DNA of 64,000 nt from Methanolinea sp. (GTDB lineage: Archaea; Halobacteriota; Methanomicrobia; Methanomicrobiales; Methanospirillaceae), in contig JALOPW010000005.1 of assembly GCA_025453675.1 (NCBI GenBank), forward strand, positions 1 to 64,000, written 5' to 3'. Below are positions 43,235 to 63,368 of the stretch, piece after piece. The first letter of the stretch is position 1; each line of letters starts with the position of its first letter. The position numbers were made by a program, and so were the translations under genes. The notes below the pieces were generated by a model, which saw nothing but the letters and a program-made list of their open reading frames with translations, was not told the DNA's origin and ran no database searches.

Positions 43235-43570
43235 GTGGGAATGCCTGAGGTGACTGACGACGAGCGGGGAAGGAGAGTATTCCAGATCCATAAAGAGATG
43301 GCTGTTGAGAAGGCGCTGGAGAAAATTCGCCAGAATATCGGGCAGGACTGGAAGATCTATTCGGCAACAGACATCGAACTACTCAAGTATCTGCTTGGGG
43401 AGGGCTGGATCTCTATGGATCGTCGGAGGTGGGAGGGGTTCACCTTCACCCGCCTTACAAGGAATGATCTCGATGAGATCATCCGGATGGCAAAAGAGGT
43501 AAAGAGGAAGGAGCGGCTGGAGAGTGATGCGGTCAGGGACGTGACAGAGATACTAGGAAGGGTCTCATGA
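43235..43570 (+). CDS. Small protein of unknown function, paralogue of 42273..42614
   Basis: GRRVFQIHKEMAVEKALEKIRQNIGQDWKIYSATD..KYLLGEGW. Confidence 0.7.
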   Translation: MGMPEVTDDERGRRVFQIHKEMAVEKALEKIRQNIGQDWKIYSATDIELLKYLLGEGWISMDRRRWEGFTFTRLTRNDLDEIIRMAKEVKRKERLESDAVRDVTEILGRVS

Positions 43571-44066
43571 GGTCTTCCCGGGAGCAGCGGCCTTCTTCTT
43601 CCGATCGATGATCTTCTTCACTTTTTTTCAGCCGGTAGAGGTCTTCGCGTTCGCGTTCGTCTATCGTGATCTCGATATATTTTGCCTGGCGTGTTAATTC
43701 GGGGATGAGCACCTGCTCCAGGGCATTCGCTATCCTTCGGGTCATCTGGATCTCGCTGCTTATTCTCCGGATCGATGTCTCGGTCTCTGCGAGGCTGATT
43801 ATGAGATCCAGTTCTGCTCCGTATTTCTCCGCAGCCTCGTCAATTCGCCCGCTCACCCCCAGGATACTACAGCTCCTCTTCATGAGGCCCTTCACGAACC
43901 GCTTCTTCTCGATGATGGGGACAGGGACACCCACGATATTCTTCCCCTTGATGTCGAGGGTGATGCCGCTCCTGGTGGCAAAAGAGGCAGACTTCAGGGT
44001 GATGGGATCATCGACCGCCAGCGCGATCAGCAGAGAGTGCTGGGCAACGTTGGCGAGTGTCTTCAT
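43565..44066 (-). pseudogene. Decayed second A-ATP synthase D subunit (atpD')
   Basis: Highly similar to 45433..46065 but lacks ~50 N-terminal residues. A7 homopolymer (plus-strand T7 43622-43628) shifts the frame; restoring A6 gives LKKVKKIIDRKKKAAAPGKTS*. Confidence 0.8.
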
Positions 44067-44393
44067 CCCCCTGGATATGTGACATTATGATTATTCACGA
44101 ATGCATGATTTCGTGGTGATATGTTATCATATCCCATAGGAAAGGAAAATAGCGTCCCTCTATTTTTCATCTTTATATCTCCACCCAAAGACACCGTCAC
44201 GGCGATTTTCCACGTATATTCGTGTCCTGACATGATATCGTCCCATGCAATGTCTGGACCCACGACTGATCGGCAAGGATAGGAATGCCTGATTTTAATA
44301 CCTGGAATAAATGGATCTTCGCATCCCTTGCTTTTTTTAAAAAAGGATTATTCAGTATCGCCAAGGATGCTGAATAACACCTCATACACTCCT

Positions 44394-44612
44394 TCAGGCC
44401 ATCAAAATGATCAATGTTGCAACAACGAACCCTAAAATGACAAGGGTTTCAGGAAGAGCTTCAAGAATAATAATGACACCTGCAGTTTCCGGTTTTTCTG
44501 CGACCGTGCCCGCTCCAGCCGCACCGATTCTTGATTGTGCATAACCACATGCAACCGCACCACCAAAAAAAGCAACCCCTGCCCCGATTGGTACTGCCCA
44601 TTCTGCCATCAA
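44394..44612 (-). CDS. Second A-type ATP synthase proteolipid subunit K (K')
   Basis: PIGAGVAFFGGAVACGYAQSRIGAAGAGTVAEKPET...ALPETLVILGFVVA; aggtga SD and ttataaaat upstream. Confidence 0.88.
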   Translation of the reverse strand: MMAEWAVPIGAGVAFFGGAVACGYAQSRIGAAGAGTVAEKPETAGVIIILEALPETLVILGFVVATLIILMA

Positions 44613-45432: not shown

Positions 45433-46065
45433 TCATTTTTTCTTCCTTTCTATAATCTTTTTCACCTTTTTCAACCGGAAAAGGTCTTCCCGATCCCGTT
45501 CATCTATCGTAGTCTTAATATATTTAGCCTGTTTTTTCAATTCGGGGATAAGTATCTGCTCTAGTGCATTTACCCGCCGCCGGGTCATCTGGATTTCACT
45601 TCCTAATCGTCGTAGCGATGTCTCGGTCTCTGCGAGACTGATGATGAGATCCAGTTCCGCTTCATATTTTTCTGCTGCTTCGTCGATCCGTCCGCTCACT
45701 CCCAAAATACTATAGCCCCGATCCAGGATGCTTTTTACAAAACGCTTTTTTTCGATAATTGGAACAGGTACACCCATGACATTTTTTCCCTTGATATCAA
45801 GGGTGATACCCCGCCTGGTGGCGAATGAAGCAGACTTGAGGGTAACAGGATCATCTATTGCCTGGGCGATAAGCAGAGCATGCTGGGCGATATCGGATAG
45901 TTTCTCAAGCTCGCTTCGTGACTGTGAAACCGATTCCATGACATTGAAGAACTCCTGGATCAGCGCATCCATCTTTTCCCGGAGGAGATCACGTCCCTGT
46001 TCTGCGAGCTTTATCTGGGCATTCTTCTTTATGAGCTCCATCCGGGTGGGATTAATTTGTTCCAT
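45433..46065 (-). CDS. atpD: A-type ATP synthase subunit D
   Basis: NPTRMELIKKNAQIKLAEQGRDLLREKMDALIQEF; end of A-ATPase operon. Confidence 0.93.
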   Translation of the reverse strand: MEQINPTRMELIKKNAQIKLAEQGRDLLREKMDALIQEFFNVMESVSQSRSELEKLSDIAQHALLIAQAIDDPVTLKSASFATRRGITLDIKGKNVMGVPVPIIEKKRFVKSILDRGYSILGVSGRIDEAAEKYEAELDLIISLAETETSLRRLGSEIQMTRRRVNALEQILIPELKKQAKYIKTTIDERDREDLFRLKKVKKIIERKKK

Positions 46066-46067
46066 AA

Positions 46068-47465
46068 TTATCCCTTTTGATAGGCAGGGTGATATTTCTG
46101 GATGTATTCACGTTTGATCCGTTTCAATTCCTCCTCAGGCAGCAGCGTGAATAACTGCCATCCAATTTCGAGTGTTCTCTCGATGCTCCGGTTCTCATCT
46201 CCCTGTGTAATGAACTGACGCTCGAATTCATCGGCGATTTTCAGGTATTTCTTGTCAAGTTCAGTAAGTGCCTCTTCTCCGACGATAGCTACGAGCCTTC
46301 TCAAGTCCCTCCCATACGCATATGAAGCATAGAGCTGATCGGCAACATTCCGATGGTCTTCCCTGGTTTTTCCCGGCCCAATTCCGAGGTTCATCAGACG
46401 TGAAAGGCAGGGAAGCGTGTCGACCGGAGGATCAGCACCACGACGAAACAGGTCTCGCGAGAGAACAATCTGTCCTTCTGTAATGTAACCTGTTAGGTCA
46501 GGGACAGGATGGGTGATATCATCATCCGGCATGGTAAGAATCGGGATCTGGGTGATAGAACCTTTCTTTCCCTTTACCCTGCCTGCACGTTCATAGATTG
46601 ATGCCAGGTCAGTATACATGTAACCGGGATATCCCCGTCTGCCCGGAACTTCCTCCCGGGCTGTGGAGATTTCCCGCAGCGCTTCACAATAATTGATCAT
46701 ATCGGTCAGGATGACCAGTACGTGAAGATCATGCTCAAAGGCCAGGAATTCTGCGGCTGTGAGTGCACATCGGGGGGTTGCTATTCTCTCAATTGTTGGA
46801 TCATCTGCAAGGTTCATGAAAAAAACAACGCGTTCCAGTGCGCCCGTCTTTTCAAAATCCCTCATAAAGAACGAGGCTTCTTTATAGGTAATTCCCATGG
46901 CTACAAAAATGACTGCAAACTTCTCTTCTTCCCCGAGTACCCGTGCCTGTCGTGCAATCTGTGCGGCCAGTTTGTTCGCAGGAAGGCCTGCGCCAGAGAA
47001 AATAGGTAATTTCTGGCCCCGGACAAGGGTATTCAGACCATCAATTGTTGACATCCCGGTCTGGATGAAATCGGCGGGTTTGTCGCGGGCTGATGGATTG
47101 ATCGGCATTCCATTGATATCCAGGTTTGCTTCTTCGATGATATCAGGCCCGCCGTCACGGGGTTTACCAATCCCATCAAAAGTCCGTCCCAGCATATCGA
47201 TTGAGACCTTGACTTTTGGGGGTTCTCCTGTAAATCGGACCCGGGTATCCTTATTGTCGATACCACTGGTACCTTCATAGACCTGGGTTACTGCAATATC
47301 CTTTGAGATATCAAGTACCTGCCCGGTGCGTTCCTCACCAGTAGGAAGAATGATCCGAACAATTTCTCCATATGAGACGCCCTTGACATTCTGGATAAAT
47401 ATCAATGGGCCTGAAACGTAACTGATTGCCCTGGCCTCTTTGGTATAAAGCGGGGCTTTTTTCAT
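46068..47465 (-). CDS. atpB: A-type ATP synthase subunit B
   Basis: [41 protein letters not shown]. Confidence 0.95.
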
Positions 47466-49201
47466 CGTTCCGCCTCCAGTGCACTAATAGCGCCATCAAT
47501 CTTTGTGATCAGGTCCTTTATCTGGTCAAATCCGGAAAGTTCCTTCATTCGACCAATCTCATTTTTCACGGGGAGTTTCAGAATCTTTGTGAGCGGGACC
47601 CCTTTTCCCATAGCCAGGTCCACCCGTTCGTGGAAGGAAAGGATCACCCGGAGCATCCAATACTGCTTTTCAAGTGAGCAAAAGGAATCAATGTCATGGT
47701 ATGCACTCTGTTGCAGGAAGTCCTCCCGAATCATGCGAGTGATCTCAAGAATTGCTTTTTCGCTTTCGGGTAATGCATCAGGACCGACGAGTTGCACAAT
47801 CTCCTGCAGCTCAACCTCCTTCTGGAGGAGATACATCGTACGTGCCCGTAGATCCTTCCAGTCAGAAAAACCACTTGCGGTAAACCAATCCTGAACCTGA
47901 TCCAGATATAGTGAGTAACTTTTTATCCAGTTCACCGAGGGGAAGTGCCGCCGATACGCGAGACTCGTATCGAGAGCCCAGAATGTACCTGCAATACGCA
48001 GGGTATTCTGGGTGATTGGTTCTGAGAAATCACCCCCCGGGGGAGAAACAGCACCGACCACCGTGACCGACCCTTTTCGTTCATCTGAACCGAGACAGAC
48101 CACTCGCCCTGCCCGTTCGTAGAATGCAGCCAGTCTCGTTGCAAGATACGCAGGGTATCCTTCTTCTCCTGGCATTTCTTCGAGCCGGCCTGACACCTCA
48201 CGCAAGGCTTCACCCCATCGTGATGTTGAGTCAGCCATGAGAGCAACATCGTATCCCATATCGCGATAGTATTCAGCGAGGGTGATCCCGGTATAGATGG
48301 ATGCTTCCCGTGCAGCGACTGGCATATTGGATGTATTTGCAATCAGAATGGTCCGCTGGATAAGGGGATACTTCGTCCTTGGATCGACAAGTTCCGGAAA
48401 TTCTGTGAGCACATCCGTCATCTCGTTCCCCCGCTCTCCGCAACCGATATAGACAACGACCTGGGTATCGGACCATTTGGCGAGTGTCTGCTCAGCAACG
48501 GTTTTTCCCGTACCGAATCCGCCAGGAATCATCGCAGTTCCCCCCTTGGTCACGGGAAAAAGTGAATCAAAGACACGCTGACCAGTCACAAGTAATGTAT
48601 CGGGGTCCATCTTCCGTTGATAGGGTCTCCCTTTCCGTACTGGCCACGTCTGCAACATGGGGATTTGAGTACCATCCTCTAAAGTACAGACCGGCTCGTC
48701 TACAGTAAACTCACCACTATGTATCTCTTTTACAATACCGGAAACAAACGGGGGCATCATCACACGGTGTTCGAGGTGATACTCTGTGACAGTTCCGATT
48801 ATATCACCCCCAGTCACCTGGTCCCCCATTTTCACTCGTGGCCTAAACTCCCATCTCCTTACATGCGAGAGCCCGGGGAGCGTAACGCCCCGCGAGATGA
48901 AACTTCCGGTCTTTTCTGCAAGGAGAGGGAGGGGTCTTTGAATACCGTCATAGATAGAAGAGAGGAGGCCGGGTCCGAGCTCTACTGAAAGTGGCAGCCC
49001 GGTATTTGTAACTTTTTCACCCACCTTCAGACCCGTAGTGTCCTCATAGACCTGAATGACCGCCTGATCACCATCAAGCCGTATAATCTCTCCATTCAGC
49101 TCCTGCTCTCCGACCTTTACGACGTCATACATCCGGCATCCCCGCATCCCTTCAGACAGGACAACGGGCCCCGAAATTCTGGAAATATCTCCGACAATCA
49201 T
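47462..49201 (-). CDS. atpA: A-type ATP synthase catalytic subunit A (variant P-loop GGFGTGKT)
   Basis: [71 protein letters not shown]. Confidence 0.95.
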
Positions 49202-49205
49202 ACTG

Positions 49206-49526
49206 CTACTTCCTCAGCACGATGTTATACCCGATTGCTCTTCTCAGCAGCCCCTCTATGTAACTCGTCCGGTCCAACCGCTTTACACGGGAGGGAATAG
49301 GGATGATGATCGGCCGATACGATTTTTCAATCTTCTCCATCATCTTTTCATCCAGTGATGTCATGTAATCCTCGTTAATCGCAATAATACCGGTATCATC
49401 CTTCAGGAGCAGAGAGGGCAGCAGCGTACGAACCTCTTCGGAATTCTGGATCTCCATCACATCAATTCCAGCAAGGCGAAATCCCGTGGCGGTATCGGGA
49501 TCCGTTACCACAATAAATTTATACAC
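49206..49526 (-). CDS. atpF: A-type ATP synthase subunit F (GTG start)
   Basis: [20 protein letters not shown]; between C and A genes. Confidence 0.85.
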
Positions 49527-50580
49527 TGATAAGCGCCTCCCTGAGGTCTTTTTCCGACATTCCGGAGGCTTTACAGCGGGCAATAACCCTGATATTTGTA
49601 ACCTCGGTATATTTTGCCCAGATATAGGCAATCGGGATAGCGATGGAGAGAGGATCTCCGAGAAACTGACTTATCGCCTTTTTTACAAGGTAGTTCTCCA
49701 GTTCCTTTTCAAAGGCCGAGATCTTCTCTACCGCGACGTATTCAGGTGGAATCTTCGTGAGAAATTGGAAAGGTGTTTGCTCTAGCTTCTTGAGTACTCC
49801 TTCAATCGTCCCTATTCTCACCAATGAGGTAAGAGTTTCAATATTAAACTCGGTGCTCCCTTTTATGAAATACCTTTTTGCTTCTTCATGGGCAATCCGA
49901 TCCCGAATCACCCGTAATACCGTTTTTATGTTGGTAATATCGATTTCTGTAATGATCAATCGCTTAAGAATGCGAGCATCCTCCGATTCATCGCTTTTAA
50001 TGACGGAAAGGGCATCTTCATAGTAGAATGTGTCAAGTGCGTACTCAAGCACCATCATATCTCTGGTCTCAGCAAATTCCTTGAAGTTGAGGGTCAGTGG
50101 ATGAGAATAGACGAAACTCCATGTGGCGAGAAGATCAATGACTGCCTTGACATCAGGCTGTTTGACCAGCTCGGTGAGTGCTGCTTCATCAAGCTCCCCG
50201 GCCGGGATAAGACATTCGAAAATTTCCTTTGGACTCGCCTGAATTTTTTTACCTCTTAAGATGGTCTTGATATTCTGGATGTCCCAGCGGTGGAGGATGA
50301 TAGTGAGGAGCGTCTCTGCATCCTCTCCCTTTATAAAATTCAAGATGGTTCTGAAAGACCTGACGAGGTCTTTACGAATCGCGACCTCTATATGGTTTAT
50401 ACCAGAAACCAGAATCCCCGCCTTCTCCAGTTCCTCCCTGTACGAGGTTTTTTGAAGTTCCGCAATGAGGGAATCAAGGTCAGGTTTATTAATTAATTGT
50501 TCAAGGAGCGATCGATCAAGCAGGCGGCTCTTCATGGCTCGTATCCGTGCGTTGACGTACGCGTACTCCATCTCACTCAC
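49519..50580 (-). CDS. atpC: A-type ATP synthase subunit C
   Basis: YAYVNARIRAMKSRLLDRSLLEQLI; operon position. Confidence 0.9.
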   Translation of the reverse strand: MSEMEYAYVNARIRAMKSRLLDRSLLEQLINKPDLDSLIAELQKTSYREELEKAGILVSGINHIEVAIRKDLVRSFRTILNFIKGEDAETLLTIILHRWDIQNIKTILRGKKIQASPKEIFECLIPAGELDEAALTELVKQPDVKAVIDLLATWSFVYSHPLTLNFKEFAETRDMMVLEYALDTFYYEDALSVIKSDESEDARILKRLIITEIDITNIKTVLRVIRDRIAHEEAKRYFIKGSTEFNIETLTSLVRIGTIEGVLKKLEQTPFQFLTKIPPEYVAVEKISAFEKELENYLVKKAISQFLGDPLSIAIPIAYIWAKYTEVTNIRVIARCKASGMSEKDLREALISV

Positions 50581-51157
50581 CGAACAATATTGAGAAAATT
50601 TCTGGCCTGTAAATCTCTTTCGCTCTTTTTAGCCGGGATTCAAGGGTATTGAATATAATAAAGCGTTCATCACGAGTGGATATGTTCAATCCACCAGCAC
50701 AGGTGAGATCGGTTACAACCTGGTAGTGTTCTTTTGATTCATTCAGGATTTCCTTCCAGAGCGCCTCATCTCTTTTATCGATATGAAGAACGACATCACT
50801 ATCACCCAGCCCGGTAAGTGCTTCATTCAATAATAATTTCAGACTATCCCTGTATTGCGGGCGTTCGCGAACAGATTCAAGTTGGTGCAGTGCTTCATCG
50901 AATATCTTCTGGAATACCTCGTTTTTTGTTTTGATGATCTCCATACGACGTTTTTCACGTGCCGCGGAGAGAAGTTTATTCCTCTGAATTTCAACCGACT
51001 TTTTCGCTTCATCGACGTGTCGCTTTCTGAGTGGTTCGTCTCTCACCTGCGCTTCTTTAATAATTTCTTCTGCCTCGGCTTTTGAGCGTTCCATTATCTC
51101 GGTGATACGCTCCTGGCCACTCACCTCTACAGCCTTGATCAGATCTTCAATTGCCAT
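50573..51157 (-). CDS. atpE: A-type ATP synthase subunit E
   Basis: Coiled-coil stalk sequence; operon position between K and C. Confidence 0.9.
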   Translation of the reverse strand: MAIEDLIKAVEVSGQERITEIMERSKAEAEEIIKEAQVRDEPLRKRHVDEAKKSVEIQRNKLLSAAREKRRMEIIKTKNEVFQKIFDEALHQLESVRERPQYRDSLKLLLNEALTGLGDSDVVLHIDKRDEALWKEILNESKEHYQVVTDLTCAGGLNISTRDERFIIFNTLESRLKRAKEIYRPEIFSILFGE

Positions 51158-51227
51158 GATTCACCCTTCACGGTTCGCAGTCCGGAGTGATTCTGTTCAC
51201 ATATGGTATTCGCGGGATTTTACCGGT

Positions 51228-51449
51228 TCATACCAGCATGATCATGATCATGGCTGCGACCACGAAACCCAGGATCACGAGAGTTTCGGGAATGGCAACC
51301 AGAATAATCATTAATCCAAATGTTTCCGGTTTTTCTGCAATCGTTCCCGCCCCCGCTGCGCCAATCTTTGATTGTGCAATCCCGGTGCCGAGCGCTCCAA
51401 GCCCAAATGCGATACCTGCCCCAATGGGGATTCCGAAATCAACCACCAT
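51228..51449 (-). CDS. atpK: A-type ATP synthase proteolipid subunit K
   Basis: PIGAGIAFGLGALGTGIAQSKIGAAGAGTIAEKPET...IPETLVILGFVVA. Confidence 0.93.
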   Translation of the reverse strand: MVVDFGIPIGAGIAFGLGALGTGIAQSKIGAAGAGTIAEKPETFGLMIILVAIPETLVILGFVVAAMIMIMLV

Positions 51450-51653
51450 TCACACTTACCTCCTTACAAAGCGCCGCCCTGTGCACAGGCGGCACATCAT
51501 TTTCACGTTACGATTCTTGCCTGATACCGCTTTCAGATAATGGCGGCACTCGGCGATGGAATTTAAATCCATTTGATATCTTTCACTTACATGGATCATT
51601 CTCCTCCGATGGTATGTCAATAAATATTGGAATAATGAATAATCCCTGCCGAT

Positions 51654-53606
51654 TCACAGCGATTTTCCCCCGTTTTCCTTCTTGAAAGGTTTGTACATCT
51701 CCCCGCCACCCTCGTAGAATTTTGAGTCGAACTCGACAAGGTGCAAACGGAGGGAGTGGAGGAATGGGCTGAACATGGCGAGGACGATATTGAGTGTATG
51801 GAGCATCGCAGCAATCAGGAGTCCCAGGAGTGCCACATCCATCATACCCCCAAGTTTATTGGCGACAACGGCAAGGATGACCGATGCCATGCCGATCGCC
51901 ATGATACGCGCATACGAGAGGATATTTCCGACCGTGCTCATGATCTCGAATACGCCAAAAAATCCTCCACCGTAGATGATGAGGGGAAGGGCCACAACCA
52001 ATAGCACCACCCCCAGCGTGAGCAGGGGCTCAGCGAGCACCTTTGTTGCCGCAGCAATTACCAGGATCAGGCCGGTGATCACGACAATCATCCCTGCTTT
52101 TTCGCAGATGTGTTTTTTCGCTTTGCTCACATGCCGGTTGCAGCTGATCTCCGTATAGGCATTCAGGATCCCGAGGGAAAGACCCAGGAAGATATGGAAG
52201 ACACCGATTGCGATGGACAGTATGAGGAGGGGGACGATGATTTCGATACGGTTCCACGTAATGCCGAACAGATCCATGGGATGGATCCACCCCATATGCT
52301 CGCCGAAATCGCCGAAGAATTCCCCGTATATCCAACCGAAAAATATTGTCGGGATCGATACGATGATAAGGATGTTCATGAGATGCTGGAGCCATTCATA
52401 ATCGGGGAATCTCCACCTCACGATAAGGGCAAAGGCGAGAATGATCAGGCCATATGCGATATCTCCCACCATAATCCCGAAGAATATGGGGAAAAAAATA
52501 GCGAGGATCGGACTGGGGTCGATCTCATGGGACCTGGCTGGGCTGATGACCCGCATGAGGTATTCGAACGGTTTTACAATCCGGGGATTGTCGTAGAATG
52601 TGGGGGCATTCGCCATCTCCTCGGGGCTGACAGGCAGTTCATTGACAACTAAACGACCCCCAAAGGTATCTCTGAGTGCCGATGCAGTATCTTTGAGGAA
52701 CTTCTTTGGTATCCATCCCAAGACGACAAATGTAAACTCTGTCTGCCCGATTTTTGAGAAGATACTCAATTCTTCGGATCTTTCTTCTAGTATCTGGTAT
52801 AAGGCTGAGAGTTCAATATACCATATCAAAGAGATTTTCGCGAGTTCCGCATTTATTCGGGCAATATTCTCTGTTGCCGTGTTTTTCCTCTCGTCGATCA
52901 AGGAAAAGATCTCGTTGAATGGTTTTCCCAGATATTCGGCGGGCAATCGAACCTCATTCACATTCTGGGTAAAAGCGAAGGAATGTACCTGTTCTGAGTA
53001 CCGCTTGTTGAAAATCGTGACTGCTGCGATGGTTTTCTCATCCACATCTGCGGAGAGCAATTCAAACTGGTTCCTCGTTATTTCGGTAAGAGCATTCCGG
53101 ATGATGTCAATGACGTCCTTAAATTCCCTCTGGATCAGGAGAACGGTGACTTCGAAACCTTCCAATTGAGGCAGGCTGCTCTCAAGTGGCCGAATCTTGT
53201 CGAGAATCTTTTCATACCGGCTGAGGTTGGTGAGTTCGATCTCCAGGTCTCCTTTCTCAGTCGCGAGTGTTTTTGTGACCGGTTCCAATTCATCAATGAC
53301 CGAGTTTACATGGAGGAGAAGGTCCGCATGGCTTTGTGCTCTCAGGGTGGAATGCATATTGGATAATGCTTTTTCATCCACCTTGATTTTTGGAAGTGTG
53401 AGGAGGATGCCACCAATTTTTGGGACTGCAGCGGCAATATCACCGACCTGGTCAACAGTCATTCTTTTAAGGCTAATTTCCCCTGGTGTGTTTTGTGCAG
53501 ATGCATCTTCAAGCTGTACTGTTCCTTTGGCATACAGTAAATCCAGTGCGGAATGAAGGTCTCTCTTCGGACCTATTACCTGGATTTTCACCATTTTCTG
53601 GAGCAT
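51654..53606 (-). CDS. atpI: A-type ATP synthase subunit I (a)
   Basis: FFPIFFGIMVGDIAYGLI, AYTEISCNRHVSKAKK; membrane domain. Confidence 0.93.
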   Translation of the reverse strand: MLQKMVKIQVIGPKRDLHSALDLLYAKGTVQLEDASAQNTPGEISLKRMTVDQVGDIAAAVPKIGGILLTLPKIKVDEKALSNMHSTLRAQSHADLLLHVNSVIDELEPVTKTLATEKGDLEIELTNLSRYEKILDKIRPLESSLPQLEGFEVTVLLIQREFKDVIDIIRNALTEITRNQFELLSADVDEKTIAAVTIFNKRYSEQVHSFAFTQNVNEVRLPAEYLGKPFNEIFSLIDERKNTATENIARINAELAKISLIWYIELSALYQILEERSEELSIFSKIGQTEFTFVVLGWIPKKFLKDTASALRDTFGGRLVVNELPVSPEEMANAPTFYDNPRIVKPFEYLMRVISPARSHEIDPSPILAIFFPIFFGIMVGDIAYGLIILAFALIVRWRFPDYEWLQHLMNILIIVSIPTIFFGWIYGEFFGDFGEHMGWIHPMDLFGITWNRIEIIVPLLILSIAIGVFHIFLGLSLGILNAYTEISCNRHVSKAKKHICEKAGMIVVITGLILVIAAATKVLAEPLLTLGVVLLVVALPLIIYGGGFFGVFEIMSTVGNILSYARIMAIGMASVILAVVANKLGGMMDVALLGLLIAAMLHTLNIVLAMFSPFLHSLRLHLVEFDSKFYEGGGEMYKPFKKENGGKSL

Positions 53607-53612
53607 GGCTCT

Positions 53613-53933
53613 CTATCCTGATAGCACGATGGTAACGATTTTTTCAACCGCCTTAGGTATATTCTTCTCGCCGTTTTCACGAACCTTTTTTACCTCTTCG
53701 ATGGCGTGAATCCCGATATTATCTGCCTCTCCCTGGATTTTTTCCATTTCTTTACGGAGAAATTCACTCGCTGCTTTTTTTCCTTCTGTTTCTGATGATG
53801 AGATTAGCACAGAAGATTCTTTCTTGGCTTGCTCAATCACACGATCGGCGGCACTTCTGGATTCGTCAATCTTCACGCCCATCTCAAGTTCCTTTTCCCG
53901 GATTTTCGCTAATACTGATTTCTCAGATGCCAT
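53613..53933 (-). CDS. atpH: A-type ATP synthase subunit H
   Basis: Short coiled-coil upstream of atpI, MASEKSVLAKIREKELEMGVKIDESRSAADRVIEQAKKES. Confidence 0.85.
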   Translation of the reverse strand: MASEKSVLAKIREKELEMGVKIDESRSAADRVIEQAKKESSVLISSSETEGKKAASEFLRKEMEKIQGEADNIGIHAIEEVKKVRENGEKNIPKAVEKIVTIVLSG

Positions 53934-53944
53934 GTCACAACTCC

Positions 53945-54118
53945 TCACATCCCGCGGAGTTGCCGCAGGTGTCTGCCGATCCCATGGGTGGCTGGATCCA
54001 CTTGTCCCTCTCTCTCTTCACGGGGCTTGAGCAGTTTTGCAGCCAGGCGGTCCCTGCAACGGTCTACCACGGTCTGCCTCAACTTCCGTACCAGTTCGGG
54101 CTGATCTGCACATGCCAT
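53945..54118 (-). CDS. Small ORF (57 aa) preceding atpH, below ORF-track cutoff
   Basis: Manual translation MACADQPELVRKLRQTVVDRCRDRLAAKLLKPREEREGQVDPATHGIGRHLRQLRGM*; stop followed by ggag then atpH ATG; ungapped similarity to 54200..54376. Confidence 0.5.
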   Translation of the reverse strand: MACADQPELVRKLRQTVVDRCRDRLAAKLLKPREEREGQVDPATHGIGRHLRQLRGM

Positions 54119-54376: not shown

Positions 54377-54965
54377 ATCGCATCTGTGCCTCCCTCTGAA
54401 GGACTACCTAAGTATCTATTTTAGGATATATATTTTACTACAGGGCAATTCAAAATTACAGTTATTTTTTCTATTTGTTAACAATTATCGAATTTTGGTA
54501 AAAATGCGCGCAAAATTATCTCCCCTTTATAAATGTTGGGGTGAGACAGGGTTTCGTATGAATATCATGAATCAAAATACCCTGTTTTTTCGTTCATTTC
54601 AACGCTGCATCGTTCATTTTTACTGAAGGACTCAATATCCCCTGGTACCTGTGATCGCCACACGGCTGAAACCAGAATCTCCAGCCAGATGCAGTAAGAA
54701 CTCCATTCATGCAGTCATAATCCCGGTTGTCCCGGTCTTCGAACAAGGGCGATATCCAGTTGCCGATGAAAAGGGAATGACAGATGGATGATTGGGAATA
54801 TTGGTAGAGAACCGCAAAATGAGGTTGTTCGATGAAGGAGTCAGAATGCGTTTGAGGGACCCGGGATTTCCTTCTGCCCGTACGAAACGGCAAGGGGAGA
54901 TAAAAGGCAAAGTCTTTTTCAGTTGGAAGGAACAGGAACAGTGTAAGGGTACGACAGGGAAGTGT

Positions 54966-55832
54966 ATGTTTTCTCGAATCCTATTTCCCACTGATTTCTC
55001 GGAATATGCAGCAAAGACACTTGAATGCATAGCCGGTTTTCCCGGAGCCAGGGACGTGATACTGCTGCATGTAATCAAAGAGACCTGGTCTCCCCGCGGT
55101 GGTGGCGAGATCGGAGGTGCACTGTTCCATAACGAAAAAAATACTCTCCGGGAAGAGAAGCACCATCTTGAGACACTCGGAGAGAACCTCAGGGTTACAT
55201 CGGTGGTAAAAATCTCATCCGATACAGCCGGAGCAATTATCCAGGCAGCTGAAGAGAATAACGTGTCCCTGATCGTGATCGGTGCACGCGGGAAGGGCAC
55301 CATGGAAGGGATTCTCCTTGGGAGCGTATCGAATGCAGTCCTCCGCCGCAGCAGGACCAGTGTCCTGATCATGCGCCATAAGATCACCAGGAGCCTGGAA
55401 GGAAAGAAGTATGAAATGTTCTGCCCGATGATCCTCTCAAAGGTCCTCTGCCCTGTTGATTTCTCCCGATTCTCTGAGAATGCGATTGCCGTGGTAAACG
55501 CGACACACGGGGTGGGAGAGGTTATCCTTCTCTACGTGGTATCACGCGGTGAGACCGAGGAGGAGATTGAGAATTGTTACGCGAAGGCAAAGGATCGGAT
55601 AGAGGCAATCCAGAGCAGGCTTGCAGCACAGGGTATCAATTCAAGGGCGATGGTGAGAAAGGGGAACCCTGCATCCGAGATCACGAAAGTTGCCGAGGAG
55701 GAGGATGTGTCGGTCATCTGGATGAGTTCCGTCGGAAAAGGCTGGTTCCGTGAGCTCCTGATCGGCAGTACTGCGGATGCGGTTGCAGTGAACGCTAGAC
55801 GGCCGGTGATCATCATCCGTTCGGCCCCATAA
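54966..55832 (+). CDS. Universal stress protein with two tandem UspA domains
   Basis: RILFPTDFSEYAAKTLECI ... VIGARGKGTMEGILLGSVSNAVLRRSRTSVLIM and second KVLCPVDFSRFSENAI ... GSTADAVAVNARRPVIII. Confidence 0.9.
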   Translation: MFSRILFPTDFSEYAAKTLECIAGFPGARDVILLHVIKETWSPRGGGEIGGALFHNEKNTLREEKHHLETLGENLRVTSVVKISSDTAGAIIQAAEENNVSLIVIGARGKGTMEGILLGSVSNAVLRRSRTSVLIMRHKITRSLEGKKYEMFCPMILSKVLCPVDFSRFSENAIAVVNATHGVGEVILLYVVSRGETEEEIENCYAKAKDRIEAIQSRLAAQGINSRAMVRKGNPASEITKVAEEEDVSVIWMSSVGKGWFRELLIGSTADAVAVNARRPVIIIRSAP

Positions 55833-56044
55833 ACAACATCGATGGAATTGGGGAGAATCTCTCACACGGGCATCATGAGGATAATGGATACAGCCCGGTA
55901 GAAACTACAAGTGGAATCCGATGGGCTGGACCCATCGACCATCCTGCGGGAGGGAACGGACAGGGGATCACCGGAATCACTTCCGGCTCACCATTTATCT
56001 CAGATTGTAATGGAAAAATGGATGGATATCCAGATTTGTTCGTC

Positions 56045-56500
56045 TCACGTGCCGAACCTGCCAAGAATACCCAGGGTAAATGCCATTACAAGTAACGCAA
56101 CGGTCTCGGTCATCCCCAGGACGATCATATAATTGCCGAATCCTTTTCCGGTCTCTCCCATGGCGTCACAGGCACAGGCGGCGCATTTACCCTGGAAATA
56201 TGCTGAGAGACCTATGGCCGCGCCACAAAAGGCTCCGATACCCCACAGGTAAATCCCCTGTGCGGCAAGGTCATACATCCTGTTCATCACGATCATGCCA
56301 TAGATCGTCTGGGTAAGCGGTGCACCAACAAACGCAACGAGCATGAAGGCTGCTGGTTTATTCTGGCTGTAATTCTTTTTCCATGCCCCTATTGCAGCCA
56401 TTCCGGCCGTTCCTGCTCCTGCGGCAGAACCGAGAGCGGCCAGGGCGAGCACCATACTCAATCCAAGGTCCTGAAATTGTGCCAGTAAGTTCGCATCCAT
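56045..56500 (-). CDS. Bacterial-type V-ATPase subunit K (four-TM proteolipid)
   Basis: 151 aa; APLTQTIYG in helix 2, AYFQGKCAACA, MTETVALLVMA in helix 4. Confidence 0.92.
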   Translation of the reverse strand: MDANLLAQFQDLGLSMVLALAALGSAAGAGTAGMAAIGAWKKNYSQNKPAAFMLVAFVGAPLTQTIYGMIVMNRMYDLAAQGIYLWGIGAFCGAAIGLSAYFQGKCAACACDAMGETGKGFGNYMIVLGMTETVALLVMAFTLGILGRFGT

Positions 56501-56515
56501 AATATCCTCCTGGTG

Positions 56516-58300
56516 TCACTCCTCTCTGAGCGGTTCGAAGGCCGTCCCGCTCCATATTACATTCGCGTGTCCGGAAAATTCGAGCACGTTCAGCCTGACG
56601 CCGTGCACGAGAACTGACATCGGTCCTAAAATGATGTTTAAGCCATGGCCGGTTATAAGAATTCCTACGCCTGCCACCAACGCAACAATCCCATCACCGA
56701 ATCCAAATGCCAGGGTGTTCGTTGTCTCTGCTATCGCCAGGGTTGCGAGGCCAACCGCGAAGAGGCGTATGTAGGAGATTACGTCAGTAAAATTGTTCAT
56801 GAGACTCAGCGCTACAGTTCCTAATCCAGTCCCGATCCCTTTCAGGACGTTTCGCTGGGGGTGAGTGAACAGAATTACGAGTATAATCCCTGATGCAATC
56901 AGCCATATCCCGAAGGGAGGGAATGCATCTCCCAGGATTAATGTCCTGGCGACGAAAAAAGCAGTCCAGAGCACACATATCCAGCCAATATCAGCAAATA
57001 ATGTCAGTGACGGAAATTTCAGTAGTGCTCTCCAGGAATGGGCTATGGACAGGTGCAGGGCTCCAAGGAAGAAACAGAACGTCTGCATGAAGCTGGTATC
57101 GTTTAACTGGGGAACAAGAGGCTTGTAACCGAGAGCCAGGAACCAGGCCTGGCCAAAGAAGGTACCGGTGAGAAGGCCCCATATGACTGCACAGGTTCCC
57201 AGGAGATAAAACAATACAAAAGTCGTCTTCATCCCGGCATTCTGTATCATCATCTTTTTCAGCACGAGTTTCTGCAATACCAGTGTAATCAGGATATATG
57301 CCAGCCCGTATCCGGCATCACCAATGAGAATGCCAAAAAAAATGCCGAAAAATATCAGGAAAAGGCAACTTACATCAAGTTCACGATACCCTGGGGTGAG
57401 TCCCAGGAGCCCGAGTACAGGGGTAATCAGACTGACCCATTTTGGATTGCGAATGAGCGTCGGCACCTCATCAACCTCCGTTGGTTCAGTTACCATGACA
57501 CCCCATCTCCGCTGTCTGGCTTCGTCAACCAGTTGCTCTTCCATGTCAAACGGGATGTACCCTGTCACATAACTGATTGCTCCCTCCCTGCCCATGCCGC
57601 TCAATACCTGCTGGAATTCAATCTCTTTCATAAGGTTTCTCTTTATTTCTAAGAGCGCCTCGTGAAAACGAGCGGATTTGAGAATTTCTTTTTTTATCAT
57701 CCCAACCGTATCAGTATTTTCAGCAAGCTGCGTTTTGAGTGCAGAAAGGCCCTGCTTTGGCGGGATGATCTCAGGAAACGGGCATTCGAACTGCCTGCGC
57801 GATATCGCGGCGCAATGGGCGATGTTGCCTGCGGTAAATATCGTTTTCACGATCACGTCATCGGGAAAATCTCCGATCTTCTTTTCCGGCACCTGGTAAA
57901 GCCCAAGAAATATACCGTGCTCTCTCAGGTGCCGTATCTGGTGGAGATCAACGTCTCCCCAGCGCTCCCACTCATTGATCTGACCGATGATCCCCCTGGA
58001 TGTGGACTCCAGCTGTTCGTGGCGCTTGCCCAGTTCGATGATGCGGTCTACAACCGGTTTCCAGTCGCCGCTGATCGCGTCCTGCGGTGGAATATTCTTC
58101 CCTGACTCCAGCACCTGGTTCAGGACATCAAACGAGGAATTGACGAGGGTCACTTTTTCCTGGAGCGCGGTTATATCCCTGCTCTCGGGCAGGTTCTGGT
58201 GCTCCACGTGCAGGACCCCCAATGTGCGCAACCGTGTGACCGTTGCTTTTGCGTCGCCGGTTTCAAAAAGGATAGTGGCTTTTTTCATCGGGACGATCAC
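56516..58300 (-). CDS. Bacterial-type V-ATPase subunit I
   Basis: FFGIFFGILIGDAGYGLAYI; SLMNNFTDVISYIRLFAVGLA. Confidence 0.92.
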   Translation of the reverse strand: MIVPMKKATILFETGDAKATVTRLRTLGVLHVEHQNLPESRDITALQEKVTLVNSSFDVLNQVLESGKNIPPQDAISGDWKPVVDRIIELGKRHEQLESTSRGIIGQINEWERWGDVDLHQIRHLREHGIFLGLYQVPEKKIGDFPDDVIVKTIFTAGNIAHCAAISRRQFECPFPEIIPPKQGLSALKTQLAENTDTVGMIKKEILKSARFHEALLEIKRNLMKEIEFQQVLSGMGREGAISYVTGYIPFDMEEQLVDEARQRRWGVMVTEPTEVDEVPTLIRNPKWVSLITPVLGLLGLTPGYRELDVSCLFLIFFGIFFGILIGDAGYGLAYILITLVLQKLVLKKMMIQNAGMKTTFVLFYLLGTCAVIWGLLTGTFFGQAWFLALGYKPLVPQLNDTSFMQTFCFFLGALHLSIAHSWRALLKFPSLTLFADIGWICVLWTAFFVARTLILGDAFPPFGIWLIASGIILVILFTHPQRNVLKGIGTGLGTVALSLMNNFTDVISYIRLFAVGLATLAIAETTNTLAFGFGDGIVALVAGVGILITGHGLNIILGPMSVLVHGVRLNVLEFSGHANVIWSGTAFEPLREE

Positions 58301-58908
58301 ATTGCCACCTCTTCTGCATTTGCGGCTTCGATCTTCTTTTTGGCGATTTTACTCCGGCCTACAGCGTTGGTCATCTGGTCCCCGAGATGGATCTTTATCA
58401 GACGGATAGCCTCTTTTGCCTCCGGGATTTTCACTTTTTCAAACAGATTCACGCGTTGAGTGGTGATGCGCAGCTCATGGTTGAGAATTGATATTCCCTT
58501 TTCATAGACGCGGATCTCTTCAAGTACTGAGATCATCTCCCTCAATTCTTCCAGGCCCCTGTCCACCCAGGGGGGTGTTTGGAACAAGTCGTACTCTGCT
58601 GGTTCAAATTCTACCTGCACAAACACCGGGAGGTCAACACCAGCAACGTTCTTCCTTCCCGTGACGATATTTTTTGGCAGGAGCCATTCCCTGATACCGG
58701 GAGCCTCGATTAATAGTCCTGACCATTCTTCTGCGGCTTTCATCTTCAGGGACAGTGCATTCTTCATTCCTTTTAAAACGCCCTGCTGGTGCAGGATCTC
58801 GAGCTGCAATTGCTGTTTCTTCAGTTGCAGGGTGGGCAGGTACCTCTCGTACTGGCGCAACGCATCTCTTTGTCTTTTCAGCTCGCCCTGAGAGAGTTTA
58901 ATTTTCAT
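58297..58908 (-). CDS. Bacterial-type V-ATPase subunit D
   Basis: [33 protein letters not shown]; operon position. Confidence 0.9.
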
Positions 58909-60202
58909 GTGTGCCTGGCCAATAGATATCTATCATCGATTTTTTGATCCCTGTCTCTTCAGGAGAGAAGCAATCGTGCAGGATCTCCCAGCCCAGATCC
59001 AGCGCTCTTTCGAGCGGAATATTGACCTTGAGAGACATCATTCTCTCCTCAAAGAGTCTTCCGTATTTCAGGAGCTTCATATCCCAGGCACTCATCTCAA
59101 AACCCATTGCCTGCTTTTCCAGTGTCTCCCGGTATTCGGCAAAGAGCTGGATCATGGTATCCATGATAATCCTGTGGTCGTCGCGGGTATTGGCGTTGAC
59201 CTGCTGTTTCAGACGGCTCAGGGATCCGAATGGTTCTATCACACCGTTTTTCAGGTAAAACTGCCCCTCGGTGATATAACCGGTATTGTCCGGGATCGGA
59301 TGCGTCACATCATCCCCCGGCATGGTGGTCACGGCCAGGATGGTTATCGAACCTGCAGTATCAAAGTCAACTGCCTTCTCATAACGCGCTGCAAGCTGGC
59401 TGTATAAATCACCGGGGTATCCTCTGTTGGAAGGGATCTGCTCCATGGTAATGGAAATGACTTTCAATGCATCGCAAAAATTGCTCATATCCGTCAACAA
59501 TACCAGCACCCGTTTTCCCGCCAGGGCAAAATTCTCAGCCACAGCCAGACTGATATCCGGGACAAGCAGGCACTCCACAATCGGATCTGCTGCGGTGTGC
59601 ATAAACACGATCGAACGGGAAAGTGCGCCATGTTCTTCCAGGGTATCCCTGATGAAGAGATAATCATCATACTTCAGGCCCATGCCGCCCAGGATGATGA
59701 TGTCCACTTCAGCCTGGGTTGCAATTCTTGCTAAAAGCTCATTATACGGCTCTCCGGCAATGGAGAATATCGGGAGTTTCTGGGATTCAACCAGGGAATT
59801 GAATACATCTATCATCGGTATACCGGTTCGAATCATCTTGTTCGGTATGATTCGTTTTACCGGATTGACCGGTGGACCGCCGATATCCACGAGATTATCG
59901 GCGAGTTCCGGCCCGTTGTCGAGGGGCCTTCCGCTCCCGCTAAAAATACGGCCTAAGAGAGTGTGACCGGTAGGGATCCGCATGGGGTGTCCTAAAAATC
60001 TTACCTTGTCACCAGTGGAAATACCACGGCTTCCCGCAAAAACCTGGAGGAATACTTTCTTCCTGTCAAGGCGGATCACCTGTGCCAGGGAGGTCCCGCG
60101 CCTGGTCATCACCTGGGCCATCTCCATATTGCCCACGTTCTCCGCCTCGACAGTGATGACGTCGCCGACAATCTGAGATATACTGGAATAGAATTTCTGC
60201 AT
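58898..60202 (-). CDS. Bacterial-type V-ATPase subunit B
   Basis: [51 protein letters not shown]. Confidence 0.93.
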
Positions 60203-60203
60203 G

Positions 60204-61940
60204 CTAACCTTTCATCATCCGCTCGCGCAAGAGCACCCTGATCTCCTGTTCGGTCCTTTCAAACTCTTCACTCCCCCAGGGAGCGGAGTTCCATCCCCTG
60301 AAAACCTGTCTCAGTTGCTGGAAGAAATGCAAAGCTGAATTCTTGTCCTCAAATGTGAAATCCGACTCAAAGATCCGGTAAATAAAATCAAACACGTATA
60401 CCTGCCGGTCCTTCGGAGTCGCTTCGTCAACGACGTCAAAGGCATTCTGCTGGAGGTAGACAAAATCAAAAAATTCTGCTTTCAGATAGTCTATGTAATC
60501 GGGAAGCGATGTCCCTTCTTCTCCGACCACCTTCATCATCTGCGACACATCGTTGCCCTTGCGCAGAATCTGCTGCCCCCGTTCTTTCTGGTTCTCATCA
60601 ATGAAACTCCTGTACTTGCTCCAGCTGATCAACGGGTCTATGGCCGGGTACCTGCGTGCATCGGAACGGCTGCGGGAAAGCCCGTGGAATGCGCCGACGA
60701 CTTTTAATGTTGCCTGGGTTACCGGTTCTTCAAAGTTGCCCCCAGCAGGACTGACCGCTCCCCCGATGGTGACCGAACCGGTCGATCCGTCATATAACCG
60801 TACCATACCTGACCTTTCGTAGAAAGAGGCGATGTGAGACTCCAGGTAGGCAGGGAACGCCTCTTCTCCCGGGATCTCTTCGAGCCGTCCTGACATCTCA
60901 CGCATGGCCTGGGCCCAACGGGAAGTGGAATCAGCAAGCAATAGTACGTGAAGACCCATCTGGCGGAAATATTCTGCGATGGTGACTGCCGTGTAGACGC
61001 TTGATTCTCGCGCCGCTACAGGCATGGAGCTGGTATTGCAGATGATTACGGTGCGATCGCTCAGGGGGCGGTTGGTTCTTGGGTCAATCAACGTGGGGAA
61101 TGTTTTTATCGTCTCGACAACCTCTCCCGCCCGCTCACCACACGCAGCGATAATGACGACGTCCGCATCGGCATGTCGGCTGGTGAGCTGTTGCAGCACT
61201 GTTTTCCCCGCTCCGAAAGGACCGGGGATGCAATATGTTCCCCCCCTGGCAACCGGAAAAAGCGAATCAATAAGGCGCATCTTGGTGACCAGCGGTTCAC
61301 CGGGTTTGAGCTTCTCGGCGTACGCTTTTATCGGGATCTTTACAGGCCAGTTCTGGCTCAAAAATACAGGATGGATCTTTCCGTGTGCGTCCTTCAAACG
61401 GGCGACAGCCTGGTGCTTGGTGAACGCGGCCGCATTTTCAACCGAGACGACCTCAAAAATTCCCTCCCAGGAGAAGGGAACCATGCAGTAGTGCTGAAAA
61501 ATATTCTCGTTCACGAATCCGATTTTATCGCCGGCACGCACCTGGTCCCCGGGTTGGACCAGCGGGGAAAAATCCCATGCCCGGGAATCAGAAAGCGCAT
61601 CGACATATACACCCCGTTTTAAGAAAAAGCCGCATTGTTTGGCAAGTTCCGGGAGAGGATTCTGCAGGCCATCGAATATCTGCCCGAGCATCCCTGGCCC
61701 GAGCTCGACCGAGAGGAGCTCGCCGGTAAACTCAACCTCCTCACCAATTTTCAGACTGCTGGTATCCTCATATACCTGCATCTCCGCCAAATTGCCGCGC
61801 ACGCGGATTATTTCAGACTTGAGACGCTCTTTTTCATGCAGAATATAGGCAACCTCGTTCTGCATGACCGGTGAATCGAAACTGACAGTCACCATGTTGC
61901 CGCCGATTTTTGTTATCCGGCCTCTTCGCGGTGAAGTCAT
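60204..61940 (-). CDS. Bacterial-type V-ATPase catalytic subunit A
   Basis: [68 protein letters not shown]. Confidence 0.94.
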
Positions 61941-62480
61941 TTATCCTCGTGAATGCATGAGCGTATGTTCGAGCAGTTTTTTTGGATCCGCAGTGCGGAT
62001 GTTCTCCCAGCGGAGGAGTATCAGTAACTTATACGCATAGGTAATCAATGAATCCAAATCAAAATGATGGCCTGTTGCCAACATCTCCAGAGCCTTCCAC
62101 CGTATCTCGTCAAGGGCCATCTCTGCATCAAGGAGAGAAGGGTTGCTGGTCGCAGTCAATGCAACAGTGGTGAGTGATGAATCGCTGTACCACTCGGGAC
62201 GCAGATACAGCGCAGGCGGAGTATGTTTCCTGGTTGCGCGTACCTTTGCCAGCTCATTTCTCAAGGCAGTATCAAATTCTATCCATTTCTGGATGGTATT
62301 GTGTCTGTGGCGAGTTCCGGAATAGTGTTTGGGTTGAGGCAGGGTGCGTAACAGTTGAAAGTCCTGTTCCGGAATGAACTGGTGGCATATTTCAAGAAAC
62401 TGCTCGAAAGAAAATGGTGGTTTCATCCCAAAATGCAGCATGGGCAGGCTTGGAATCAGGTAAGGGTAAAAATCAACCAT
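61941..62480 (-). CDS. DUF2764-like V-ATPase operon protein
   Basis: YPYLIPSLPMLHFGMKPPFSFEQFLEIC; position between E and A as in bacterial V-ATPase operons. Confidence 0.8.
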   Translation of the reverse strand: MVDFYPYLIPSLPMLHFGMKPPFSFEQFLEICHQFIPEQDFQLLRTLPQPKHYSGTRHRHNTIQKWIEFDTALRNELAKVRATRKHTPPALYLRPEWYSDSSLTTVALTATSNPSLLDAEMALDEIRWKALEMLATGHHFDLDSLITYAYKLLILLRWENIRTADPKKLLEHTLMHSRG

Positions 62481-62486
62481 TCTGTT

Positions 62487-63098
62487 TCATTCCTTCATTG
62501 ATTCCCGGAGAATTCTATTTAATTTCGGCTTGAGGTATGTGCCGATATATTCTGCAAGGCTCCTGTCGGAAAAATCGTAACAGGATTTACCGCTGTCAAA
62601 ACTAATGATGAACCCTCCCGAAATTTCTTCCGCAGGCCTTAAAATAATGTTTTTCTTCGTCTCTTCCTTGAGTCTGGAAAAATAATGTCTCTCAAGGACT
62701 TCCAGGTCCTCTTTTGTCAATAAAACCTCGATATTCTCATGTTCCCCCTCATTATATTGTCTGGCTATTGTGGATATAAGACCTGATAATACCTCGGGGG
62801 ATAAAGCCTGCCGGACATCGGGAACTATTATGCGCTCGAGCATGGCATTCATCTCATTCCTTAGCGAGAGGAGAAGATCCCTTCCTGCCTGAGCAAGTAA
62901 TGCCTTTTCCCGCTCCTCTTCCTGTTGAATTCTTTCTTGTGCGGCAGCAATAATCCTCTCTGCTTCGAGCCGTGAGGAAGCAATAATCTCGTCAGCTTTC
63001 TGCTTTGCGTGAGCCTCGATGTGTGTAGCTTTTTCCTCTGCAGCCTGTATCCCATCCTGATTTATTTTATCGATTAAATCTCTGATCTCCTCTGCCAT
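62487..63098 (-). CDS. Bacterial-type V-ATPase subunit E
   Basis: MAEEIRDLIDKINQDGIQAAEEKATHIEAHAKQKADEIIASSRLEAERII coiled coil; first gene of operon. Confidence 0.88.
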   Translation of the reverse strand: MAEEIRDLIDKINQDGIQAAEEKATHIEAHAKQKADEIIASSRLEAERIIAAAQERIQQEEEREKALLAQAGRDLLLSLRNEMNAMLERIIVPDVRQALSPEVLSGLISTIARQYNEGEHENIEVLLTKEDLEVLERHYFSRLKEETKKNIILRPAEEISGGFIISFDSGKSCYDFSDRSLAEYIGTYLKPKLNRILRESMKE

Positions 63099-63368
63099 AG
63101 GGCACCCTCCACTTTGTGAATGCATGGTAGGTTTGCATACACCACAGCTATAAATCCGATCTCTTCCTGCATCATCATTCCGGGGGCTTCAAAGAGTGAT
63201 AAGGGATTGAAAATACCACATATAAATCTTTGTAAATGGGAATTTTCATCTCTTGCCAGAACACCAACCGGAACGCGTGGGCATTCATTCCCGGCAACTC
63301 CCGCACATTGAAAGAAGGATAGGTTGCCCTGCATCCGGCATTTTTCCCATATATATATCGAATTCATT

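What the first reader, a model, noticed from the sequence alone, without database searches (positions are those of the whole stretch)
56045..56500. Cluster-2 K subunit carries an E. hirae NtpK-like Na+ ligand pattern and only one carboxylate per four helices
Helix 2 reads APLTQTIYGM (T-Q-x-x-Y as in NtpK T64/Q65/Y68), helix 3 has a Gln (AYFQG), and helix 4 has the Glu (MTETVALL). No acidic residue sits in helix 2. That predicts a Na+-translocating rotor with a low ion/ATP ratio, which favours ATP-driven Na+ export over synthesis.
Basis: partly seen in the sequence, partly recalled or inferred. Interest (0 to 1): 0.7.

Follow-up and report, generated by a model that had tools for sequence, protein, structure and literature searches.

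The report
Sodium-type rotor subunit, swappable ATPase operon
A methane-producing archaeon carries a bacterial-style rotary ATPase whose rotor subunit has the complete known sodium-binding residue set; that part is a known kind, but related archaea hold a quite different, also sodium-type, ATPase operon in exactly the same chromosomal slot, which makes the two look interchangeable.

Summary
The gene at 56045-56500 (-) encodes a 151-aa, four-helix K subunit. Aligned with E. hirae NtpK (2BL2), T63, Q64, Y67, Q103 and E132 fall on T64, Q65, Y68, Q110 and E139, and Leu62 fills the helix-2 carboxylate position. All five are invariant across the ten aligned archaeal sequences. A Na+-type rotor with one site per subunit is the best reading, but it is a known kind: K belongs to NCBIfam PRK06649, and its operon (E-DUF2764-A-B-D-I-K) is a divergent bacterial-type V-ATPase beside a normal archaeal ATPase cluster. 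The step from 'one carboxylate' to 'low ion/ATP ratio, hence export' is not supported: ring size is unknown, E. hirae-like rings of ten can run either way, and this operon is exchanged in relatives for one with more sites per hairpin.

The unexpected result lies around it. In two genera, with both flanks conserved, this slot holds either this operon or an A-type operon whose K has six fused hairpins and five carboxylates. In 150 genomes of the order, 12 have the first, 47 the multi-hairpin type, none both. The exchange keeps the Na+ ligand set and changes sites per hairpin. Ion specificity and direction remain untested.

The parts
56045..56500 (-). K subunit (151 aa, two hairpins, PRK06649 type), the subject of the finding
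56300..56317 (-). Helix-2 motif L62-T63-Q64-T65-I66-Y67: T63, Q64 and Y67 = NtpK T64, Q65, Y68; L62 at the lost carboxylate position
   Evidence: codons read; alignment
56192..56194 (-). Helix-3 Q103 codon = NtpK Q110
56105..56107 (-). Helix-4 E132 codon = NtpK E139, the single mid-membrane carboxylate
56516..58300 (-). Subunit I/a (stator); both conserved Arg-containing motifs present (SYIRLFAVGLA and HGVRLNVLEF)
   Evidence: NF004429 433 bits (below its equivalog cut-off); sequence
58297..58908 (-). Subunit D, PRK02195
   Evidence: 206.7 bits against a cut-off of 189
58898..60202 (-). Subunit B, PRK02118
   Evidence: 731 bits against a cut-off of 431
60204..61940 (-). Catalytic subunit A with P-loop GPFGAGKT
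   Evidence: 745.9 bits; 43% identical to cluster-1 A
61941..62480 (-). DUF2764 protein of this operon type
   Evidence: PF10962 29.4 bits against a cut-off of 24.1
62487..63125 (-). Subunit E-like, PRK01558 type
   Evidence: 146 bits, below the equivalog cut-off of 241
54792..55832 (+). Universal stress protein gene between the two ATPase operons; conserved right flank of the exchanged cassette
   Evidence: PF00582; synteny
45433..53948 (-). Cluster 1: complete archaeal A-type operon (H-I-K-E-C-F-A-B-D), single-hairpin K at 51228-51449

Best explanation
The gene is the rotor (K) subunit of a bacterial-type V-ATPase operon in a Methanomicrobiales-like archaeon. One Na+ is bound per subunit inside the four-helix bundle by helix-2 Thr63, Gln64 and the A60 carbonyl, helix-3 Gln103 and helix-4 Glu132, with Tyr67 bonding the glutamate, as in E. 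hirae NtpK. The first hairpin lacks its own Gln and Glu, so each two-hairpin chain carries one site. The enzyme most likely works as an accessory, ATP-driven Na+ pump beside two ordinary archaeal ATP synthases, and it occupies a chromosomal slot that in sister species is filled by a different Na+-type rotary ATPase. Shown: gene, motif alignment, conservation, operon, slot exchange. Inferred: Na+ binding, one site per chain in an assembled ring, and ATP-driven direction.
For: Ligand-column coincidence with NtpK and invariance in relatives. Operon subunits D, B and K over their NCBIfam cut-offs. Polar Gln at the discriminating position (rule from PMC2359735), against Leu/Ile in the other K genes of the genome. 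Stator Arg motifs present. Two other A-type clusters with C and F in the genome. The alternative operon in the same slot has the same TQxxY + Q + E pattern.
Against: No structure: the AlphaFold model was low confidence (pLDDT 51.7). No biochemistry. The E. hirae site is reported as only very weakly H+-selective, and it is excess Na+ that makes it a Na+ pump (PMC3692424), so H+ coupling at low Na+ is possible. The operon lacks C, F and H, and the genome has C and F only in the other two clusters, so completeness is unproven. Direction cannot be read from sequence.
Confidence: 0.7

Rival explanations
1. It is a Na+-coupled ATP synthase using the Na+ gradient made by the methyltransferase Mtr.
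For: Rings with one site per two hairpins can run either way (authors' statement in PMC2359735); A-type synthases with such rotors are known (established knowledge, Pyrococcus furiosus). Methanogens make a Na+ gradient with Mtr (established knowledge).
Against: Two standard A-type clusters are already present; the operon has no recognisable C or F gene of its own.
Confidence: 0.22
2. It is an H+ pump that retains Na+ ligands without using them.
For: Some H+ enzymes keep part of the Na+ ligand set (PMC2359735).
Against: The whole set is kept and invariant, and a polar residue at the 65 position is not seen in predicted H+ enzymes.
Confidence: 0.1
3. The operon is a non-functional or rarely used acquired element.
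For: Patchy distribution, 12 of 150 genomes of the order; missing C, F and H genes.
Against: All seven genes are present in order in the window and nine relatives at 56-95% protein identity, with A, B and K most conserved.
Confidence: 0.07

Closest known systems
Enterococcus hirae V-type Na+-ATPase, NtpK (PDB 2BL2)
   Same: Four helices, one mid-membrane Glu, identical T/Q/Y/Q/E residues at the aligned ligand positions
   Different: Only 32% identity; best family model is PRK06649 (178 bits), the next K model scores 60 bits; the operon has a different make-up
Spirochete/Chlamydia/Bacteroidetes-type bacterial V-ATPase (PRK06649 K, PRK02118 B, PRK02195 D, DUF2764)
   Same: K, B and D over the curated cut-offs; DUF2764 gene in the operon; gene order E-DUF2764-A-B-D-I-K as recalled for Borrelia and Chlamydia (from memory, not tested)
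   Different: Found in a methanogen next to an A-type operon; I and E are below the equivalog cut-offs and A is named only at subfamily level
Methanospirillum hungatei Aha1, Aha2, Aha3 (PMC4704411)
   Same: Three rotary ATPase clusters, two of them neighbours (Mhun_1757-1765, Mhun_1768-1775)
   Different: The passages read do not say which type Aha3 is; its K was not examined here
Multi-hairpin K of methanogens (M. jannaschii three, Methanopyrus kandleri thirteen hairpins; PMC2359735)
   Same: Fused hairpins with NtpK-like ligands, as in the alternative operon of this slot
   Different: Here six hairpins, the first without acid, so five carboxylates per chain; M. kandleri keeps a full site in every hairpin
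Thaumarchaeal V-ATPase operon transfers (PMC6863869)
   Same: Horizontal transfer of a rotary ATPase operon in archaea
   Different: That case ties H+ pumping to low pH and to pressure; this one exchanges two putative Na+ types at one locus

Membership tests
NtpK-like Na+ rotor subunit | Thr, Gln and Tyr in helix 2, Gln in helix 3, Glu in helix 4 at the 2BL2 ligand positions | tested here: met
NtpK-like Na+ rotor subunit | No carboxylate at the hairpin-1 site position | tested here: met
   Leu62 aligned with Gly63
NtpK-like Na+ rotor subunit | Ten-subunit ring with bound Na+ | not testable with these tools
   low-confidence monomer model only
NtpK-like Na+ rotor subunit | Na+-dependent ATPase activity | not testable with these tools
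   needs the enzyme
PRK06649-type bacterial V-ATPase | K over the curated cut-off | tested here: met
   178.5 against 127 bits
PRK06649-type bacterial V-ATPase | Operon with PRK02118 B, PRK02195 D and DUF2764 | tested here: met
PRK06649-type bacterial V-ATPase | Phylogenetic placement among named bacterial homologues | not tested
Archaeal A-type (Aha) synthase operon | C, F and H genes in the operon | tested here: not met
   searches place the genome's C and F only in the other two clusters; no H-like ORF seen in the operon

The most novel reading that the evidence does not exclude
One chromosomal slot in this methanogen family is reserved for a dedicated Na+ rotary ATPase, filled interchangeably by two non-orthologous machines: a bacterial-type V-ATPase with one Na+ site per two hairpins, or an A-type enzyme with a six-hairpin K giving five sites per six hairpins. 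In multi-hairpin K chains of n hairpins, n-1 carry the carboxylate, so chain length helps set the gear ratio. Selection keeps Na+ specificity while the gear ratio is free to change.
Probability: 0.4. Interest if true: 0.7.

Novelty: new member of a known kind. Interest (0 to 1): 0.45.

Why it matters
The K subunit is a clean extra example of a Na+-type rotor, in an archaeon. The in-place exchange is more useful: close relatives differ by a natural swap of one putative Na+ rotary ATPase for another with a different number of sites per hairpin, which offers a test of what the cell needs from this enzyme, ion choice or ion/ATP ratio.

Tried and rejected
AlphaFold of K (pLDDT 51.7) and of DUF2764 (pLDDT 43.2) were too poor to use, so no fold search was run. 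DUF2764 as a subunit C relative: profile comparison gave probability 0.2% with shallow alignments and there was no PDB sequence match, so undecided. A regular-expression count of the helix-1 Gln hit a GxG motif upstream and was discarded; one search was used instead. Chance as an explanation of the motif was rejected because all five positions agree and are invariant. The idea that the extra K and truncated D at 43.5-44.6 kb are remnants of a replaced cluster 1 was looked at and left open: identities do not single out one source. Papers: no held text was found that describes the six-hairpin K or the exchange; most subscription journals are not in that library.

Full report
What is there. The gene at 56045-56500 (- strand) is a 151-residue two-hairpin K subunit. 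NCBIfam places it in PRK06649 at 178.5 bits against a cut-off of 127; the other K models score about 60 bits or less. It is the last gene of E-DUF2764-A-B-D-I-K, 62487-63125 down to 56045, with neighbouring genes overlapping or separated by a few bases. D (PRK02195) and B (PRK02118) are also over their curated cut-offs, and DUF2764 matches PF10962. This looks like the divergent bacterial V-ATPases that PMC2359735 and its reviewers discuss as the Chlamydia/Borrelia/Treponema/Bacteroides group; the gene order of those bacteria is from memory.

The motif. In the alignment the five side chains that coordinate or steady the Na+ in NtpK (T64, Q65, Y68, Q110, E139; roles) coincide with T63, Q64, Y67, Q103 and E132, and Leu62 stands at the helix-2 carboxylate position. 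All are invariant in ten archaeal sequences. A eukaryotic H+ proteolipid aligned to NtpK keeps the Tyr and the Glu but not the Thr, the helix-2 Gln or the helix-3 Gln. PMC2359735 reports a polar residue at the Gln65 position in all predicted Na+ enzymes and Leu, Ile or Val in H+ enzymes. The other K genes of this genome have Leu or Ile there: cluster 1 PETL, the extra K at 44409-44588 PETL, and the C44 cluster PETI, with Glu in place of the helix-1 Gln, which resembles the two-carboxylate layout described for F. nucleatum and predicted for M. acetivorans. So the canonical Na+ set in this genome is unique to the gene under study. The rule is a predictor, not a law: M. acetivorans is reported to couple both ions.

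What does not follow. Ring size is not known from sequence. The authors of PMC2359735 say that enzymes with ten sites, E. hirae included, can run either way depending on conditions. Direction is therefore open; export is preferred here only because two further clusters with C and F genes exist (C13 cluster 1 and C44).

Context. M. hungatei was described with three such clusters, two adjacent (PMC4704411), so possession of several rotary ATPases is known in this order. The operon under study has no C, F or H gene, and the genome holds C and F only in the other two clusters. Whether DUF2764 stands in for C could not be decided.

The exchange. Searching 150 genomes of the order, 12 have this K over the cut-off and 47 match a multi-hairpin K; none has both. 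Under independent assortment that has probability 0.009 (0.025 within the family, counts read), without correction for relatedness. In relatives the order is [this operon]-usp-[cluster 1], with ech hydrogenase genes beyond where the fetched stretch reaches them. In G029, G089, G035, G053, G101 and G146 the same place before usp holds instead an A-type operon, I-K-E-C-A-B-D, whose A is 46% identical to this operon's A (G029). The left flank is conserved across types too where it was compared: in the window's genus a 500-aa ORF is 75-79% identical between operon types, and in genus g4 five ORFs are 76-91% identical between G023 (this operon) and G035 (six-hairpin). On an EF-2 tree of 26 genomes the trait needs six changes, at least four forced by well supported branches; the window's genus splits into one clade of each kind. 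G140 has the operon and a usp gene but no cluster 1 within the fetched stretch, and outside the family the six-hairpin operon usually stands without cluster 1 beside it, so the slot is a feature of this family rather than of the order.

The alternative rotor. Complete six-hairpin K chains read PQTQ(G/A)(I/M)YG in hairpin 1, four times (P/C)ETQAIYG, then (A/S)ETFAIFG; three-hairpin chains read PQTQ, CETQ, SETF. The helix-1 motif SAIGQG or a close variant recurs in later hairpins and is SAIGSG in the first where the pattern captured it. If sites form as in NtpK, between helix 2 of one hairpin and the Gln and Glu of the next, n hairpins give n-1 sites: five for six, two for three, one for two. 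The exchange therefore keeps the Na+ ligand set and changes sites per hairpin. That is an inference from motifs; ring composition is unknown.

Verdict. Observation confirmed. Na+ specificity likely. Energetic inference unsupported. The K subunit is a new member of a known kind; the slot exchange and the n-1 pattern are the parts worth following. No held paper was found that reports them, but the library lacks most subscription journals.

Noticed in passing
window 54792-63125 against G029, G089, G035, G053, G101, G146 (L082-L087, L097, L098, L102): In-place exchange of this operon for an A-type operon with a six- or three-hairpin K; right flank (usp + cluster 1) conserved in all, left flank shown conserved in two genera.
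   Followed up: yes
L024, L028, L022, L082 and others: K subunits of about 480 aa with six fused hairpins, five with a carboxylate; also three-hairpin forms with two (L027, L030).
   Followed up: partly
window 43533-44066 and 44391-44609 (-): Extra single-hairpin K (68% identical to the cluster-1 K) and a truncated D copy (78% to the cluster-1 D) downstream of cluster 1. G105 also has an extra K beside its cluster (L079 4579-4782).
   Followed up: partly
G000 C44 near 52365 (L002): Third rotary ATPase cluster whose K has Glu in helix 1 as well as helix 2, resembling the two-carboxylate layout reported for F. nucleatum and predicted for M. acetivorans.
   Followed up: partly
window 61941-62480 (-): DUF2764 protein conserved in the operon; whether it replaces subunit C is undecided.
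   Followed up: partly
cluster 1 in G035 (L087) against the window: Cluster 1 of a different genus (G035) is closer to the window's (I 82%, K 99%) than that of G029 in the same genus (I 55%), suggesting transfer of this block between genera.
   Followed up: no
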